Assembly: GCA_040386775.1 (NCBI GenBank)
Contig: JAZKEU010000008.1
Location: 8,474 to 65,474 of the forward strand
Reading direction: 5' to 3'
Length of the DNA: 57,001 bases
From: Bdellovibrionota bacterium
GTDB taxonomy: Bacteria > Bdellovibrionota > Bdellovibrionia > Bdellovibrionales > JAEYZS01
Shown: positions 7,519 through 31,485 of the stretch, piece after piece
Layout: every line of letters starts with the position of its first letter
Position numbering within the stretch: position 1 is the stretch's first letter
Translations under genes and position numbers: made by a program
Notes under the pieces: model-generated
What the model was told of the DNA's origin: nothing
Databases searched by the model: none
The model's input: the letters and a program-made list of their open reading frames with translations, nothing else

Positions 7519-8409
7519 TTACTCTTCGCCTTTAACAATTGATTCCGCCATAGAAACATATCCGTTTGCCATGTCTTTTATGCTTGCAAGTGTTTCTTCA
7601 TTTGCATTTTCAATTGCGCTCAACGTGCCCTTAACGTTCTCAAGAACTCCAGTAGCTTCTTCAGTTTCAACAGTGGCAGCAATGGCAATGTTGAAGCTCA
7701 AACCACTCTCAGAAACCTCTAGTGCTAATCCTGAGATAAGAAGTTTTGTATCAAAGAAATCAATAGCCACTTCAACAGTTGTTTTTAGGATCACTTCCTT
7801 AGTTTTAAAATTGTGAATTTTTGTATCGACTTTTAAGCTGTTCACAAGTTCAGTCCAAGCAGAGTCTTCACCTGGAGTGTTTTCTGCGAGTTCAGCCTTG
7901 ATGATTACGATTAATCTTTCTAACTGAGCTGGAATTTGATCCAATTGAGTTGTCTTTGTTGCGTCTAACAATAAAGCACGAAGAGCCTGGTCATTTTCAT
8001 CTTCAATCGGTTCCTCTTCCATGTCTTTAAGAACTTCAGTTGCAATGTAAGTATAAAGAGGAACGGATTCAGTTTTTGAACCTATAGATGCTGCAAGTTG
8101 CATTTTTGTAGCGGCAGGATCTGAGTTTAAAGTTTTAAGATCAGCTTTTACATCCACAGTTGTTGCTTTTTTGCTCCATACTGATTCTGTCGCTGTAGCA
8201 GAAATTGAAACTCCAGTTTTGAGTTTTTTAATGCTATCAAGATTTGATCTCTCATCAATTTTAACTTCTAGCTTTGGAATGAGTGGAGTTTGTTCTGCTT
8301 CAACCACAGATTTAATAACCTTGTTTACTTTTTTAACGTTCACGGAAGTATCCGCTACTGCAAATGTTGATGTGAGTGCTATGGCTCCGGCGATAATATA
8401 CTTTTTCAT
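7519..8409 (-). CDS. Secreted hypothetical protein
   Basis: 296 aa, starting with a signal peptide (MKKYIIAGAIALTSTFAVADT, cleavage after residue 19 or so). The rest is acidic, contains no cysteine, and alternates beta-prone and helical segments; it ends in an acidic helix. No family recognised. Its upstream region carries three 20-bp-phased repeats (8461-8520), suggesting dedicated regulation. Confidence 0.75.
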   Translation of the reverse strand: MKKYIIAGAIALTSTFAVADTSVNVKKVNKVIKSVVEAEQTPLIPKLEVKIDERSNLDSIKKLKTGVSISATATESVWSKKATTVDVKADLKTLNSDPAATKMQLAASIGSKTESVPLYTYIATEVLKDMEEEPIEDENDQALRALLLDATKTTQLDQIPAQLERLIVIIKAELAENTPGEDSAWTELVNSLKVDTKIHNFKTKEVILKTTVEVAIDFFDTKLLISGLALEVSESGLSFNIAIAATVETEEATGVLENVKGTLSAIENANEETLASIKDMANGYVSMAESIVKGEE

Positions 8410-26460: not shown

Positions 26461-26490
26461 CCTTCTTACTCCACAAGGAGAAGGTTTTTT
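26461..26490 (+). terminator. Second possible terminator
   Basis: CCTTCT (26461-26466) and AGAAGG (26479-26484) with TTTTTT at 26485-26490. This may overlap the end of the NADAR pseudogene fragment, so its role is uncertain. Confidence 0.35.
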
Positions 26491-26577
26491 AAGATCCGCT
26501 TTCATCCCTTAGATAATTTCATAGTGTTCCTTTTGATGTTTACCTTTGTATTCGAGGCGTTCACCATTGTATGTCAC
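26488..26577 (-). pseudogene. Fragment of a NADAR-domain gene
   Basis: Read on the minus strand from 26577, the frame gives VTYNGERLEYKGKHQ... ending at a stop at 26509-26511. It matches residues 140-161 of the intact NADAR protein at 29566-30222 at 15 of 22 positions, without gaps. Homology may continue past the stop (MKADLKK against LKAKMEQ) after loss of one codon. The rest of the gene is missing: the sequence breaks off at about 26580, next to repeat copy 1. It is a remnant of a second, diverged NADAR gene. Confidence 0.8.
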
Positions 26578-26583
26578 CCCTTC

Positions 26584-26644
26584 TGAATGTTTTACCCGCA
26601 GCAATCAAATGCTGCACATTGCATTCAAAAGCATAGTCATTTTA
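26584..26644 (+). repeat. Direct repeat copy 1 (26.6 kb)
   Basis: 34 nt (26584-26617) are identical to 27468-27501, and weaker similarity runs on to a shared TATTTTAAA-like end (26644 / 27530). It contains GCAGCA-N6-TGCTGC. This copy abuts the NADAR fragment and lies about 150 bp upstream of the DUF1566-like gene. The remaining 26645-26795 interval is AT-rich and holds that gene's GGGAGG ribosome site. Confidence 0.9.
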
Positions 26645-26795
26645 AAGTGCACAGTCTATTTAGTCTTCACAGTACATGTTGAGTAGAAGTTTTACTTTTA
26701 CAAAACAAGTCGTAGGGACAAATGTATCTTCCCTGATTAAGAGATACTAATTTATTAAAGACATAAACGTAAAAATTTATTCTTTGGGAGGTTTT

Positions 26796-27377
26796 ATGAA
26801 GACATTATCAATAAGAAATGCAGTTTTGGATACCATAGAGAAATTTGTAAAATGTGCTGTTTTTTTATTTTTCTTACTAACTATGAATGGACTTTCGTAT
26901 GCAAGCGAAAGATCTCCATGTGGTTTAAGCGGTACAGTGGATGAGAGAATCAGCGATTGTTCTAGTCAGTCTGATTTTCAAAAAGAAGGTTTTATTTTAG
27001 TTAGCAGAAAGCCTAGTTTGGGAGAGGTACGAAAAGAACTTTCTACTGGGCTTATTTGGAGTGATCGACTTCCAAGTAGATTTACTTATATTGAGTCCAC
27101 GACAGCCTGTAATGCTGATTCCCTTGCTGTTAATGGCTCAGTTGGTGTCGCAGGCATTACCGATATTACATGGAGGAGGCCAACTTGGGATGAATACATA
27201 GAAGCCGAGAAGAATGGTATTCGAAAGGCAATGCCAAACATGGTTGGAAAAGTTGCAGATGACAATTTGTTTTGGACGGAGGATTGGGGGCTATTCGATG
27301 GTAGACGCGGTGTTATTACCTTCATGTCATTAGACGCGCCTTTCTCTGTTCGATGTGTATCTGGATCAAATACTTAA
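26796..27377 (+). CDS. Secreted DUF1566/Lcl-like protein
   Basis: 193 aa, start set at the ATG at 26796 with GGGAGG four nt upstream (an ATG 12 nt earlier lies before that site). The N-terminus has a hydrophobic signal segment (about residues 22-38, ending SYASE). The mature part follows the DUF1566/Lcl pattern: TGLIWSDRLPS, then a Cys in TTACNAD, TWRRPTWDEYIEAEKNGI, LFWTEDWG and SVRCVSG at the end. Such domains occur in surface or secreted proteins, often with adhesion-like roles. It sits between the two repeat copies, upstream of a TIGR02147 regulator. Confidence 0.75.
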   Translation: MKTLSIRNAVLDTIEKFVKCAVFLFFLLTMNGLSYASERSPCGLSGTVDERISDCSSQSDFQKEGFILVSRKPSLGEVRKELSTGLIWSDRLPSRFTYIESTTACNADSLAVNGSVGVAGITDITWRRPTWDEYIEAEKNGIRKAMPNMVGKVADDNLFWTEDWGLFDGRRGVITFMSLDAPFSVRCVSGSNT

Positions 27378-27467
27378 TCAATCAGCGCTTATAACTTGTA
27401 TTGATCACATGCCTATCCCAGAGAGGGATAGGATCTTTCTTCAATCTCAAGTGCCTAGCGATATTTT

Positions 27468-27530
27468 TGAATGTTTTACCCGCAGCAATCAAATGCTGCA
27501 CTTTGCAGCAAAAAATGTGGTTATTTTAAA
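27468..27530 (+). repeat. Direct repeat copy 2, at regulator 5' region
   Basis: Same 34-nt block as 26584-26617. Here the arm pattern is fuller: GCAGCA, TGCTGC and again GCAGCA, separated by 6 and about 5 nt, so alternative hairpins or paired operator half-sites are possible. It ends 24 nt before the ATG of the TIGR02147 gene. Confidence 0.9.
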
Positions 27531-27553
27531 ATATTTTGTATATAAGCCTCCTC

Positions 27554-28357
27554 ATGGAAAAAATGACAACTGGCTTACCAAAAGAACATCCAACTACTTT
27601 TATCAGTTGGTTTCAGAGAGAATTTTTAAAAAGAAGAAGTAAGAACAGTGGCTATTCGATCCGTGCCTTTGCAAATTATCTTGGCTTGCCTTCAGGAACA
27701 GTATCGCATTTGTTGTCTGGCAAAAGAAAGCCTTCTGTAAAATATATTACTAAGCTTTGTGCAAAATTAGAAATGAGTCCCCAAGAACATGCGTTCATTC
27801 TCAACTCACTTGCAAAAAATCCCTCGTATGGAGATACGAGTTTTAGTCCGCAAGAGTACAGTCTAATCTCCATAGAATCTTTCAAAGTTCTATCGGAATG
27901 GTATCATTTTGCAATTTTAGAGTTAACTCATGTTAAGGGATTTCAATATGACCTCACTTGGATATCGAGAGAGCTGGGAATTTCTGTCATCGAGGCTAGG
28001 CAAGCCATTGAGAGGCTGTTGAAATTAGATCTTTTAGTAGAAAAAAGAGGAAAGCTCTTAAAAACTCAAAGCTTTGTGACTAATGGTGAAAACGATTTCG
28101 TGACAAGTTCGGCGCACAAACAGTTTCAACGGCACGTACTGCAGAGAGCACTAGAAGCCATTGATAACGTTGCAATCGAAGAAAAAGAAATCACCTCTAT
28201 GACCATGGCAATTGACGAGTCAAAATTGCCGCAAGCAAGGAAGATGATGACAAAGTTTAGAAGAGATCTTTGCCAATTTTTAGAAAATGGAAATCAGACC
28301 CGAGTTTATAATTTAGGAATTCAGCTTTACCCACTGTCCAAGGGAACAAGAAAATAG
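27554..28357 (+). CDS. TIGR02147 family regulator (DUF4423)
   Basis: 267 aa. Residues about 10-75 form a Cro/C1-type helix-turn-helix: FISWFQREFLKRRSKNSGYSIRAFANYLGLPSGTVSHLLSGKRKPS. The C-terminal part (about 95-265) matches the DUF4423 pattern: SEWYHFAILELTHVKGFQYDLTWISRELGISVIEARQAIERLLKLDLL, then SSAHKQFQRHVLQRALEAI and a C-terminal YNLGIQLYPLSK. This family is expanded in Bdellovibrio and Fibrobacter. The start is uncertain (ATG at 27554 or 27563; no clear ribosome site). It is followed 12 nt later by the secreted HExxH protein gene, so that gene is its likely operon partner. Confidence 0.85.
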   Translation: MEKMTTGLPKEHPTTFISWFQREFLKRRSKNSGYSIRAFANYLGLPSGTVSHLLSGKRKPSVKYITKLCAKLEMSPQEHAFILNSLAKNPSYGDTSFSPQEYSLISIESFKVLSEWYHFAILELTHVKGFQYDLTWISRELGISVIEARQAIERLLKLDLLVEKRGKLLKTQSFVTNGENDFVTSSAHKQFQRHVLQRALEAIDNVAIEEKEITSMTMAIDESKLPQARKMMTKFRRDLCQFLENGNQTRVYNLGIQLYPLSKGTRK

Positions 28358-28369
28358 GAGAAGTATAGT

Positions 28370-29569
28370 ATGAAGAAATATTTTTTAAGTGCGCTGAGTG
28401 TGATGGCGATATTGTCACAAGCTCATGCTGGAGCTGAGGGCAAAGGAGGAAGCTTTCCTTATTATGAATCAAATGTGTATAAGATCATTAAATCTAGTCA
28501 GGCTGCTTTATTGGAAAAACTTAATAAATGGGACGAAGAATCTTTTTCAAAGGTAATAAATCAAGAATTTGCTCATCCTATTTCTCTAAAAGAGTTAAAA
28601 GGTATTATCTCACATTTGCAATTAAAACCTGCGGAAACTGGAACAGCTATAAATCCTTATGGTATCGAAGAGCCCTTAGCTATGCATTACGGTGTCGATT
28701 CTAAGGGGCAAAAATATATTGTAGCTTACGGCAGGCTTTTTGATTTTATAAATTATGAATGCAAAGTAGAAATTAAACACAACTCTATTGCAAATGAAAT
28801 AGAAGTTGGTTCATGTTACAAGTTGGAGCTTAAATTACTGCACGAAGCTTTGCACCATTTTGGATACGAAGAAGACCAAGCTCAAGCGAATAAATATAAA
28901 ATGCTTGAACTGATTGATATTGGTTTTAATATTTTGGAAGAAACTACCCACATAAAGTCTAAAAGCCTTCTGTATAAAGAAGCTAGCGAACAAATTATCC
29001 AGTGGGCATTCGAAGGAAAAACTTTTAATAAAGTTGTAACTTTGCAAGCAATTGATTCAAACAGTCCTGACTCAACATCCTCTAATAAATACTGGGGAAT
29101 AACGTTGGATTTAAGAACGCCACGCAATAATTTATCGGAATTAATATTAGATAGAAAGACTTATGGCTCTTTCTATTATGACCAGTCATTTTTCTTAACA
29201 TCGAGGCGCCAAAATTACGACATCCATGCAGAGACGATGCCATCTGAATTTAAATTAAGCTATGAAGATAAAGATAAAATTGAATATAGATCATCAGTGT
29301 TGAGTTCGGAATCAAAGGGACGCGTGACATTTAGTGAGAACAAATTAAAATTATCAGCTAATAAATATATTCATGTGTCTGAAGAAGGTAAAACTTTCGA
29401 TAACACTCCATTTGAGAGCCTAGAGTCTCATTTAATCATATCAAAATTACCGCTTGGTCGGGAAATACATATTGATTTAATGGATAGAGTGGTATTTAGG
29501 GGGGCAAAAATAAAAATGGCATCTAGTAAACCTCCTACTCAATTAGTAATGTCTATCCATATTCCTTAA
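28370..29569 (+). CDS. Secreted HExxHxxG protein, candidate metalloprotease
   Basis: 399 aa with a signal peptide (MKKYFLSALSVMAILSQAHA, cleavage near residue 20). ELKLLHEALHHFGYEEDQA at 153-171 contains His158-Glu159-x-x-His162 followed by Gly165 and acidic residues at 167-169, like the zinc site of gluzincin or metzincin-type proteases. Residues 180-399 are predicted mainly beta and resemble no family I know. GGAGAAG precedes the ATG. It is 12 nt after the TIGR02147 regulator and convergent with the NADAR gene (overlap of 4 nt). Protease activity is inferred from the motif only. Confidence 0.75.
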   Translation: MKKYFLSALSVMAILSQAHAGAEGKGGSFPYYESNVYKIIKSSQAALLEKLNKWDEESFSKVINQEFAHPISLKELKGIISHLQLKPAETGTAINPYGIEEPLAMHYGVDSKGQKYIVAYGRLFDFINYECKVEIKHNSIANEIEVGSCYKLELKLLHEALHHFGYEEDQAQANKYKMLELIDIGFNILEETTHIKSKSLLYKEASEQIIQWAFEGKTFNKVVTLQAIDSNSPDSTSSNKYWGITLDLRTPRNNLSELILDRKTYGSFYYDQSFFLTSRRQNYDIHAETMPSEFKLSYEDKDKIEYRSSVLSSESKGRVTFSENKLKLSANKYIHVSEEGKTFDNTPFESLESHLIISKLPLGREIHIDLMDRVVFRGAKIKMASSKPPTQLVMSIHIP

Positions 29570-30222
29570 GGCAAAGCCAAAATTTCATCTCTCAAAAGCA
29601 TCCAGATATCATAGTATCTGTATGCGGGTGGGGGATTGTCTTCTGTTTTGTGATCTGGCAAAAGATCTAAGCCTTTTGTTTTTAAAAGTAGATTTCTAAC
29701 TTCAGGGTTTTGCTCCATCTTTGCTTTTAGAGCTTTGACGATGATCTCATAGTGAAGATTTTGATCCTTACCTTTGTATTCGATTCTTTGACCACTATAA
29801 GTAATCCAGGAGATATTTAATTTTTTAAGATTACTGTTAGCAATTTTTCCGGCGTTTTTGGCGTTCTCACCGACCATTTGTGAAACTTGTTTGCGCGTGT
29901 AGGGCCATTCCACTCTTGGGTCATTTCTTGGATCAGAAGAGTCTTCGAGATTTTCTGGGTACTTCATCATTTGCCAGAAACCTTCAACGCTGGCGTAGTT
30001 CTTAGAATCCAAGGTGAATGCTGTATCTGCAAAGTTTGAAAATAGGCCAAGTTCATTTCGCTTAGAAAGTATGACTTTCTTTTCTTCGCAAGATACGGAC
30101 TGCGGAAGAATTTCCCAGTCCTTTGTATCTTGAGTCACAGGCTTCCACCATTCCTTTGGGTAAGGGCAGATGTTTTCTGATGATATTGCCAATGCAAGAG
30201 TGAGCGTGAGAAGCCAAGCCAT
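29566..30222 (-). CDS. Exported NADAR (YbiA-like) domain protein
   Basis: 218 aa. A short signal-like hydrophobic start (MAWLLTLTLALAISSENI) precedes a NADAR domain at about 52-180: NELGLFSNFADTAFTLDSKNYASVEGFWQMMKYPE is the diagnostic block (LG.FSNF and the S.E...Q..K pattern), and ITYSGQRIEYKGKDQ the second. NADAR enzymes hydrolyse N-glycosidic bonds, e.g. in ADP-ribose adducts or riboflavin intermediates (YbiA), and normally work in the cytoplasm. Export is therefore unusual. It lies 9 nt after the next secreted protein gene. A fragment of a second copy lies at 26488-26577. Confidence 0.82.
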   Translation of the reverse strand: MAWLLTLTLALAISSENICPYPKEWWKPVTQDTKDWEILPQSVSCEEKKVILSKRNELGLFSNFADTAFTLDSKNYASVEGFWQMMKYPENLEDSSDPRNDPRVEWPYTRKQVSQMVGENAKNAGKIANSNLKKLNISWITYSGQRIEYKGKDQNLHYEIIVKALKAKMEQNPEVRNLLLKTKGLDLLPDHKTEDNPPPAYRYYDIWMLLRDEILALP

Positions 30223-30231
30223 TTGTTATTC

Positions 30232-31485
30232 CTACTCTGATAATTCAGTTGTGATGTCTTCTGCTGAAGCTGTCACTTGTTCTAAAAAATTGACCCATGC
30301 TGCTGAGATCTTATAAGCTTTTGGTCCAAGTGAATCCTTAGCTTTGCTGCTGATAATGAACTCAGAAAGTTCTTGGTAAAGATTTTCTACATCTGCATCC
30401 AAGCCCATAGCACTTACAACTTCTTCAACGTATTCAGGATGGTTGGTTTTCATGTACTGAGTGATTTCAGCACCCAATTTTCTGAACTCATTCTTTGTGA
30501 TATTCACTCCGCTACGACCACAATTTTTTGTGTCATCAACACGACGGCTGAACTGCCAGTAGTCTCTCATTGTGGCTTTACGATCTTTACTTGGAATCGC
30601 ACAACGTGCTTGCTCAAGAACGGTTCCTGTGAAAGTTGTTTCTCCATCTGCTGGGTTTTGGTAGTACAGCTTGAATTCTTCTTGGCCCGCATGGAATGAA
30701 GCAAGGAGAGTCACTTCTAAGAGTGCCGCATCCCAATGAGTCGTCACTCGTCCATCCATTAGATTTCGGGCTTGCTCTGCCATGTATACAGCTAAAAAAT
30801 CTGAAAGCACAGTTTGTCCAAAGTCTGTCACTTTAGCATAATTTTTGGGGTTGCTATCAAGAAGAGATTCCAAAATTGCTTTGTAAAATTGAGGTAAGTT
30901 GTCGACGTCTTGATGTCTTGTGTATTGATCTAAATCATCGAGGTAAACTTTGTAGGAAACATCATTTGCAGGTCTTGTTGTCCCTACGCTAAAGCTTCTT
31001 CCTGATTTTTGTTCAGTCGTATCGTAGTGAACATTGTAAGCGTAATTGTTTTTATAAAATTGAACTGCAACCCCACCGCCACTGGCAAGCCCAAGAAAGG
31101 TAGAAAGATCGTAACGATCTACACTACGGTTCAATGCTGCAATTTTTTGAGGAAGATCATTCAGAGTTACCGTTTCTCCTTGAAGGCCTTCCGCGATTTC
31201 CATTACGGCTTCAATGCCTCCATTTCTTTGTACGTTTTTTTGGATTTTTTCATCCACGTACTCATAGACAGCGTTAATAGTTTCACCGTCGGCGATCTGG
31301 TAGCCCTCTGTTGCCACTTCATCAAGTGCGGGCTTAACTGTTTCTTTCATGAATGCGAGGAACGTTTGTCCTTTGTGTTGGCTCAAGTCATACACATGAG
31401 TGTAATTGTTCAGCAGAACATCTTGATCCGAAGCGTGAACGCTTAAACTTATAAAAAGAGAAAGTACCAATAAAATAGATTTCAT
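30232..31485 (-). CDS. Secreted hypothetical protein
   Basis: 417 aa with a signal peptide (MKSILLVLSLFISLSVHASD). It is mostly helical and polar, with a glycine-rich FLGLASGGGVAVQFYKNN near residue 135 and cysteines in EQARCAIP and TKNCGRSG. No known family recognised. It precedes the NADAR gene by 9 nt, so the two are probably co-transcribed and co-exported. Confidence 0.75.
   Translation of the reverse strand: MKSILLVLSLFISLSVHASDQDVLLNNYTHVYDLSQHKGQTFLAFMKETVKPALDEVATEGYQIADGETINAVYEYVDEKIQKNVQRNGGIEAVMEIAEGLQGETVTLNDLPQKIAALNRSVDRYDLSTFLGLASGGGVAVQFYKNNYAYNVHYDTTEQKSGRSFSVGTTRPANDVSYKVYLDDLDQYTRHQDVDNLPQFYKAILESLLDSNPKNYAKVTDFGQTVLSDFLAVYMAEQARNLMDGRVTTHWDAALLEVTLLASFHAGQEEFKLYYQNPADGETTFTGTVLEQARCAIPSKDRKATMRDYWQFSRRVDDTKNCGRSGVNITKNEFRKLGAEITQYMKTNHPEYVEEVVSAMGLDADVENLYQELSEFIISSKAKDSLGPKAYKISAAWVNFLEQVTASAEDITTELSE

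What the first reader, a model, noticed from the sequence alone, without database searches (positions are those of the whole stretch)
26461..31485. Accessory locus: TIGR02147 regulator, secreted HExxHxxG protein and exported NADAR protein
Between scpB and the COG2509 gene lies a compact set of five genes: a DUF1566-like secreted protein, a TIGR02147 regulator 12 nt ahead of a secreted protein with a HExxHxxG motif, and, on the other strand, an exported NADAR protein paired with another secreted protein. Repeats and a NADAR remnant show the locus has been rearranged. The sequence shows the genes and spacing; that they form one system, perhaps of secreted effectors acting on prey or competitors, is inference.
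Basis: partly seen in the sequence, partly recalled or inferred. Interest (0 to 1): 0.75.

Follow-up and report, generated by a model that had tools for sequence, protein, structure and literature searches.

The report
Self-regulated exported-protein gene pairs
The five genes are real but are not one system: two of them form one of about thirty regulator-plus-exported-protein gene pairs in this Bdellovibrio-like genome, many with their own private DNA switch, and their neighbour is an exported member of an enzyme family (NADAR) otherwise described as working inside cells.

Summary
In detail: five genes, a 12-nt gap, the HExxHxxG motif, an exported NADAR, a NADAR remnant and a repeat. The "one five-gene system" reading does not. 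Across 79 relatives, NADAR (25), P0005 (5) and P0003 (4) occur separately, never as this cluster.

The real unit is P0002-P0003. The genome holds 31 TIGR02147/DUF4423 regulators. Of 30 examined, 26 are followed at -17 to +27 nt by an exported protein, nearly all with a glycine-rich mature N-terminus; 22 of the 26 carry an HE motif. Three more have such a partner divergently or upstream. Relatives show the same pairing, and almost all P0003-family genes sit beside a TIGR02147 gene, usually divergently. Upstream of the regulators lie perfect dyads centred on CA-N3-TG at about -52, each with different arms (12/30 against 0.24 expected); P0002's is TGCTGCA-CTT-TGCAGCA. I infer autoregulated, individually switched exported-protein cassettes; P0003 is probably a zinc-metallopeptidase-like protein.

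The neighbour P0004 belongs to an exported NADAR clade spanning many phyla, with the NADAR fold, invariant E80 and D190, and fusions to a phosphodiesterase and an S1/P1-like domain. It is unrelated to the pair.

What the regulators sense and what the exported proteins do is untested. No paper describing the pairing was found.

The parts
27494..27510 (.). Candidate operator of P0002: perfect dyad TGCTGCA-CTT-TGCAGCA, centred -52 from ATG 27554, of the CA-N3-TG type seen upstream of other TIGR02147 genes
   Evidence: 12/30 own regulators against a shuffle mean of 0.24, max 2 of 300; position peak; 1/57 control genes
27482..27499 (.). Overlapping perfect dyad GCAGCA-ATCAAA-TGCTGC, part of the 33-nt element found twice in the genome
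27465..27530 (+). Upstream region of P0002, 66-nt repeat copy 2 (contains both dyads and a weak promoter-like TTGCAG-N18-TAAAAT)
   Evidence: promoter read by eye, below the scan threshold
26581..26646 (+). 66-nt repeat copy 1 upstream of P0001 (85%); GCAGCA-N6-TGCTGC kept, CA-N3-TG dyad degenerate in its right arm
27554..28357 (+). P0002, TIGR02147/DUF4423 regulator (HTH_3 plus DUF4423)
   Evidence: one of 31 in the genome over cut-off
28370..29569 (+). P0003, exported protein with G-rich mature N-terminus (AGAEGKGGSF) and HEALHHFG; partner of P0002
   Evidence: family alignment A6, invariant G21, G26, G27, L103, E159, H162
26796..27377 (+). P0001, exported, remote Lcl_C (DUF1566)-like protein; possibly in the same regulon through the repeat, not shown
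29566..30222 (-). P0004, exported NADAR protein; independent neighbour
30232..31485 (-). P0005, exported protein of unknown family; 5 of 79 relatives; not linked to NADAR elsewhere
26488..26586 (-). NADAR remnant (P0004 residues 137-170, 52% identical, one internal stop)

Best explanation
P0002-P0003 is one member of a large set of self-contained expression cassettes. Each cassette is a TIGR02147-type DNA-binding regulator gene and, directly after it or divergent from it, the gene of an exported protein with a glycine-rich mature N-terminus, usually followed by an HE-containing metallopeptidase-like region. Shown by computation: the pairing, the near-universal export signal and G-rich motif, the HE motif, and a dyad of private sequence but shared CA-N3-TG core about 50 nt upstream of many of the regulators in this genome. 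Inferred: the regulator binds its own dyad and so controls itself and its partner, which lets each exported protein be switched separately. Also inferred: P0003, which keeps the full HExxHxxG and is related to lipoproteins with HEAAHxxGIGxTE, is an exported zinc-metallopeptidase-like enzyme. P0004 (exported NADAR) and P0005 are separate, accreted neighbours; P0004 probably hydrolyses an N-glycosidic bond of a nucleotide-like substrate outside the cytoplasm.
For: 31 TIGR02147 genes over cut-off in the genome. 26 of the 30 fetched have a tandem exported partner at -17 to +27 nt; L133 and L141 have a divergent partner and L145 one directly upstream. 22 of the 26 tandem partners carry a hydrophobic-HE motif. 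An automatic test for export signal, G-rich stretch and HE fits 19/30 regulator neighbourhoods (a lower bound, its ORF picker missed four pairs) and 0/59 other ORFs of the window. A profile of the commonest partner family (A5) hits the own genome at places adjacent to TIGR02147 genes, except the weakest hit, which overlaps a regulator. A profile of the P0003 family (A4) hits 13 of 141 genomes; of 18 other loci 16 lie beside a TIGR02147-like gene, mostly divergent. The pairing recurs in G015, G006, G009, G019 and G031. Operator: arms of 5 or more at CA-N3-TG in 12/30 against a shuffle mean of 0.24, max 2; perfect arms of 7 or more peak at -75 to -46; control genes 1/57 and 0/57. L118's partner is a recognisable matrixin (PF00413, 3e-5; HELGHVYGISH). 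NADAR.
Against: No binding, expression or activity data. The dyad is clear in this genome but weak elsewhere (2/16 in G031, 5/31 in others). Most partners lack the second His of HExxH, so they may not be peptidases. The P0003 model is unusable (pLDDT 34), so fold and third zinc ligand are untested. Similarity of regulators tracks similarity of partners only weakly (Mantel r 0.14, 1 of 2000 permutations over 55 pairs; not significant in the own genome alone). P0003 joins the other partner clusters by architecture and motif rather than by clear sequence homology.
Confidence: 0.75

Rival explanations
1. One five-gene system of secreted effectors against prey or competitors.
For: Compactness; four of the five products have export signals; the shared 33-nt element upstream of P0001 and P0002 could link those two.
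Against: The genes do not co-occur in relatives; P0004-P0005 face the other way and are unlinked elsewhere; exported NADAR is found in many phyla, including ones not known for predation.
Confidence: 0.06
2. Regulator-peptidase pair of the ImmR-ImmA or DdrO-IrrE kind: the HExxH protein cleaves its XRE-type partner to derepress the operon.
For: XRE-type HTH regulator next to an HExxH protein, often translationally coupled.
Against: P0003 and its relatives carry signal peptides or lipoboxes and so leave the regulator's compartment; no match to M78 or any Pfam family at E 10; most partners have lost the second His.
Confidence: 0.07
3. Self-sensing (pheromone-like) units: the exported partner, or a peptide from it, feeds back on its own regulator, as in RRNPP systems.
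For: One-to-one pairing with private operators; glycine-rich N-terminus kept in very different partners.
Against: Partners are 140-490 aa proteins, not short pro-peptides; TIGR02147 has no sensor domain beyond HTH plus DUF4423, and the AimR match (0.009, cut-off not reached) covers only the HTH.
Confidence: 0.12
4. P0004-P0005 is a DarT-NADAR-type toxin-antitoxin pair.
For: NADAR next to another gene; NADARs are antitoxins of guanine ADP-ribosyltransferases (PMC11543638, PMC11125620).
Against: P0005 matches no ART family; both are exported; the pair is not conserved.
Confidence: 0.03

Closest known systems
TIGR02147 (Fsuc_second) / DUF4423 paralogue family
   Same: P0002 scores 116 bits (cut-off 50); expanded paralogue family
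   Different: The library gives no function; the partner gene and operator pattern reported here were not found in the literature searched
NADAR superfamily: YbiA, DarT1-associated NADAR, phage gp30.3
   Same: Fold (2b3w, 8bau, 8bat are the top Foldseek hits); E80 and K87 match the spacing of catalytic E88 and K95 of E. coli C7 NADAR; invariant D190-H191 in the last strand (PMC11543638, PMC11125620)
   Different: Exported or lipoprotein; extra conserved YPxxWW...WEILPQ and LSKRNELG motifs; K87 is Leu in 25 of 74; below Pfam cut-off
ImmR-ImmA / DdrO-IrrE repressor-peptidase pairs
   Same: XRE-type regulator with adjacent HExxH gene
   Different: Partner exported, no M78 match, active-site His often lost
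HExxHxxG metallopeptidases (metzincin or gluzincin type)
   Same: HExxHxxG followed by acidic residues in P0003 and relatives; L118 partner matches matrixin
   Different: No family match and no usable fold model for P0003
Lcl_C (PF07603, DUF1566)
   Same: Two homologues of P0001 match it weakly
   Different: P0001 itself has no match

Membership tests
TIGR02147 / DUF4423 (P0002) | Curated score reached over the full length | tested here: met
   116.3 bits against 50, residues 18-263; DUF4423 147 bits
NADAR superfamily (P0004) | Pfam NADAR gathering score | tested here: not met
   22.8 against 35.1 bits; 24 of 25 relatives match at E<=0.1
NADAR superfamily (P0004) | YbiA/NADAR fold | tested here: met
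   Model pLDDT 94.7; top three Foldseek hits are YbiA 2b3w (9e-6) and NADARs 8bau and 8bat (prob 0.99), TM-scores modest at 0.41-0.43
NADAR superfamily (P0004) | Catalytic Glu, Lys and acidic residue of the last strand | tested here: met
   P0004 has E80, K87 (spacing 7, as E88/K95) and D190; across 74 sequences E80 and D190 are invariant, K87 is Lys in 49 and Leu in 25
NADAR superfamily (P0004) | De-ADP-ribosylation or N-glycosidase activity | not testable with these tools
   needs enzyme assay
DarT1-NADAR toxin-antitoxin | Adjacent ADP-ribosyltransferase | tested here: not met
   P0005 has no ART match; neighbours vary elsewhere
HExxHxxG metallopeptidase (P0003) | HExxH zinc motif conserved in the family | tested here: met
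   E159 and H162 invariant, H158 at least 90% in A6
HExxHxxG metallopeptidase (P0003) | Peptidase fold and third zinc ligand | tested here: inconclusive
   single-sequence model pLDDT 34; acidic residues follow but their alignment is loose
ImmA (M78) with ImmR | Cytoplasmic M78 peptidase next to its repressor | tested here: not met
   signal peptide present; no Pfam match at E 10
RRNPP / AimR regulators | C-terminal TPR-type peptide-binding domain | tested here: not met
   AimR match only to HTH, 15.2 against 70 bits
Lcl_C / DUF1566 (P0001) | Pfam Lcl_C score | tested here: not met
   no hit for P0001; two homologues at 1.7e-4 and 6.4e-4, below cut-off

The most novel reading that the evidence does not exclude
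Bdellovibrionales genomes carry an undescribed combinatorial repertoire of up to about 30 orthogonal one-regulator, one-exported-protein switches, each with its own operator, that lets a cell express chosen members of a metallopeptidase-like arsenal (perhaps prey- or stage-specific). Separately, an extracytoplasmic NADAR clade processes nucleotide-like N-glycosides outside the cytoplasm in many phyla.
Probability: 0.35. Interest if true: 0.8.

Novelty: new variant of a known kind. Interest (0 to 1): 0.62.

Why it matters
TIGR02147/DUF4423 proteins are numerous in Bdellovibrio-like bacteria (81 of 82 genomes) and have no assigned function in the libraries used. The pairing and the private operators give them a testable one: dedicated autoregulators of exported proteins. 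It groups dozens of orphan secreted proteins into one repertoire, which bears on how predatory bacteria deploy secreted enzymes. A DUF4423 protein (Bd3700) is already reported as induced in the prey-exit phase of B. bacteriovorus (PMC12546842). The exported NADAR clade extends a superfamily otherwise described in cytoplasmic or viral roles.

Tried and rejected
Five-gene linkage: rejected on co-occurrence. NADAR as phage-borne: no relative of A2 in IMG/VR. NADAR with a conserved partner: neighbours are clade-specific and unrelated (DUF1501, S9 peptidase, VWA, trypsin-like, pyruvate oxidoreductase); in 33 of 60 loci it follows a same-strand gene within 80 nt, against 8 of 60 with such a gene after it. 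Structure of P0003 from its single sequence: useless. Relatives from other whole genomes were not handed to the structure tool because its stated rule does not list them. Viral scans with A5 and A6 were not possible. Sigma-70 scan: fewer promoter-like sites than in shuffles. Papers: TIGR02147 gave 0 and DUF4423 gave 1; nothing on exported NADARs was found.
Full report
WHAT IS THERE. The window lies in a 2.86-Mb, 26-contig genome of a Bdellovibrio-like bacterium (kinship by the relatives, which include Bdellovibrio sp. qaytius, CP025734.1, equal in length to G076). Between ScpB and a COG2509-type FAD protein are five genes as described. P0002 is a TIGR02147/DUF4423 regulator; P0003 and P0005 have no family; P0004 is NADAR-related but below the Pfam cut-off; P0001 is at best a remote Lcl_C-like protein. 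The NADAR remnant and the repeat are real.

THE FIVE GENES ARE NOT ONE SYSTEM. Relatives of P0004 occur in 25 of 79 genomes of the order, P0005 in 5 and P0003 in 4; P0001 relatives in 8 of 141 counting this genome. P0004 and P0005 never sit together elsewhere.

THE REAL UNIT: REGULATOR PLUS EXPORTED PROTEIN. The genome has 31 TIGR02147 genes over cut-off. Of 30 fetched, 26 are followed at -17 to +27 nt, often with a 4-nt overlap, by a gene for an exported protein, nearly all with a glycine-rich stretch just after the signal peptide (AGNEGGGGGGF, ADKDRGGGGGF, AGAEGKGGSF in P0003); 22 of the 26 have a hydrophobic-HE motif. L133 and L141 have such a gene divergently, L145 directly upstream, L142 none. 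The combination is absent from 59 other ORFs of the window. In other genomes of the order the pairing recurs (G031 has the length I recall for B. bacteriovorus HD100, an inference from memory). A profile of the largest partner family finds, in the own genome, places beside TIGR02147 genes, apart from one weakest hit that overlaps a regulator. TIGR02147 genes occur in 81 of 82 near-complete genomes of the order.

P0003'S OWN FAMILY. A profile of P0003 with its three nearest relatives finds 13 of 141 genomes. Of 18 loci other than P0003, 16 have an adjacent TIGR02147-like gene, mostly divergent, one is ambiguous (L227) and one lacks it (L237). Neighbours were recognised from their sequence, and confirmed by profile coordinates in G000, G009 and G019. 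Members share a G-rich segment and IKxKLLHExAHxxGIGxxxxxD: a full HExxHxxG. Many other partners keep only HE, so peptidase activity cannot be assumed for all. One partner (L118) is a recognisable matrixin. Partner clusters are linked by profile comparison, P0003's only weakly.

A PRIVATE OPERATOR. In the 110 nt upstream of the 30 regulators, 12 have a perfect dyad centred on CA-N3-TG with arms of at least 5 (shuffles: mean 0.24, max 2 of 300), nearly all centred -50 to -55, with different outer arms: GAGGAACA-CAT-TGTTCCTC, TGAAACA-CTT-TGTTTCA, AATTTGCAACA-CCT-TGTTGCAAATT and, for P0002, TGCTGCA-CTT-TGCAGCA. Perfect arms of 7 or more of any core peak at -75 to -46. Among 57 other genes of the window 1 and 0 show these features. 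This fits a regulator bound at its own promoter with pair-specific recognition; binding itself is inferred. In other genomes the signal is weak. The copy upstream of P0001 keeps a GCAGCA-N6-TGCTGC dyad but has lost the right arm of the CA-N3-TG dyad, so co-regulation of P0001 is possible, not shown.

THE NEIGHBOURING NADAR. The family aligns at 41-57% identity to P0004. A scan of GTDB genomes gave 184 relatives; the best 80 come from Bdellovibrionota, Acidobacteria, Verrucomicrobia, Planctomycetes, Ignavibacteria, Eisenbacteria and others. 71 of 80 have an export-type N-terminus and 25 a lipobox by simple rules; most of the rest are fusions or truncated. P0004's model (pLDDT 94.7) matches YbiA and two NADAR crystal structures first. 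E80 and K87 have the spacing of catalytic E88 and K95, and D190 is invariant (PMC11543638, PMC11125620). Natural fusions join it to a type I phosphodiesterase (L087, PF01663, 2.7e-49) and a weakly S1/P1-like domain (L101); the fused members examined have Leu at 87. A nucleotide-like extracytoplasmic substrate is the inference. No relative was found in viral contigs.

WHAT REMAINS OPEN. What the regulators sense, whether they activate or repress, what the exported proteins do, and whether any of this concerns prey. The one published clue is that a DUF4423 protein of B. bacteriovorus, Bd3700, is more abundant in the exit phase (PMC12546842).

Noticed in passing
L087:6648-8582, L101:5655-8600, L105:7305-8609, L100:125-1990: Exported NADAR domains naturally fused to a type I phosphodiesterase, to an S1/P1-nuclease-like domain, in tandem, or to an unknown domain.
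   Followed up: partly
L036-L115: The exported NADAR gene tends to be the last gene of otherwise unrelated operons (same-strand gene within 80 nt upstream in 33 of 60 loci, downstream in 8 of 60), with sporadic distribution across phyla, suggesting a horizontally mobile gene.
   Followed up: partly
A2 column of P0004 K87: A lysine reported as needed for efficient ADP-ribosyl-guanine hydrolysis is Leu in 25 of 74 exported NADARs, including the fused members examined.
   Followed up: partly
26488-26646: The NADAR remnant abuts the duplicated upstream region of P0002, suggesting an earlier rearranged copy of part of the locus.
   Followed up: partly
L118:2246-3565: Partner of another TIGR02147 gene is a matrixin-like protein with a complete metzincin motif HELGHVYGISH.
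   Followed up: no
7519-8409 (-): An exported protein gene outside the locus has a CA-N3-TG dyad with 6-nt arms upstream; the only such control hit of 57.
   Followed up: no
L170:720-2159: One HE-family partner appears by eye to carry a C-terminal sulfatase-modifying-factor-like region (WRGRVIRGGSWCDGA).
   Followed up: no
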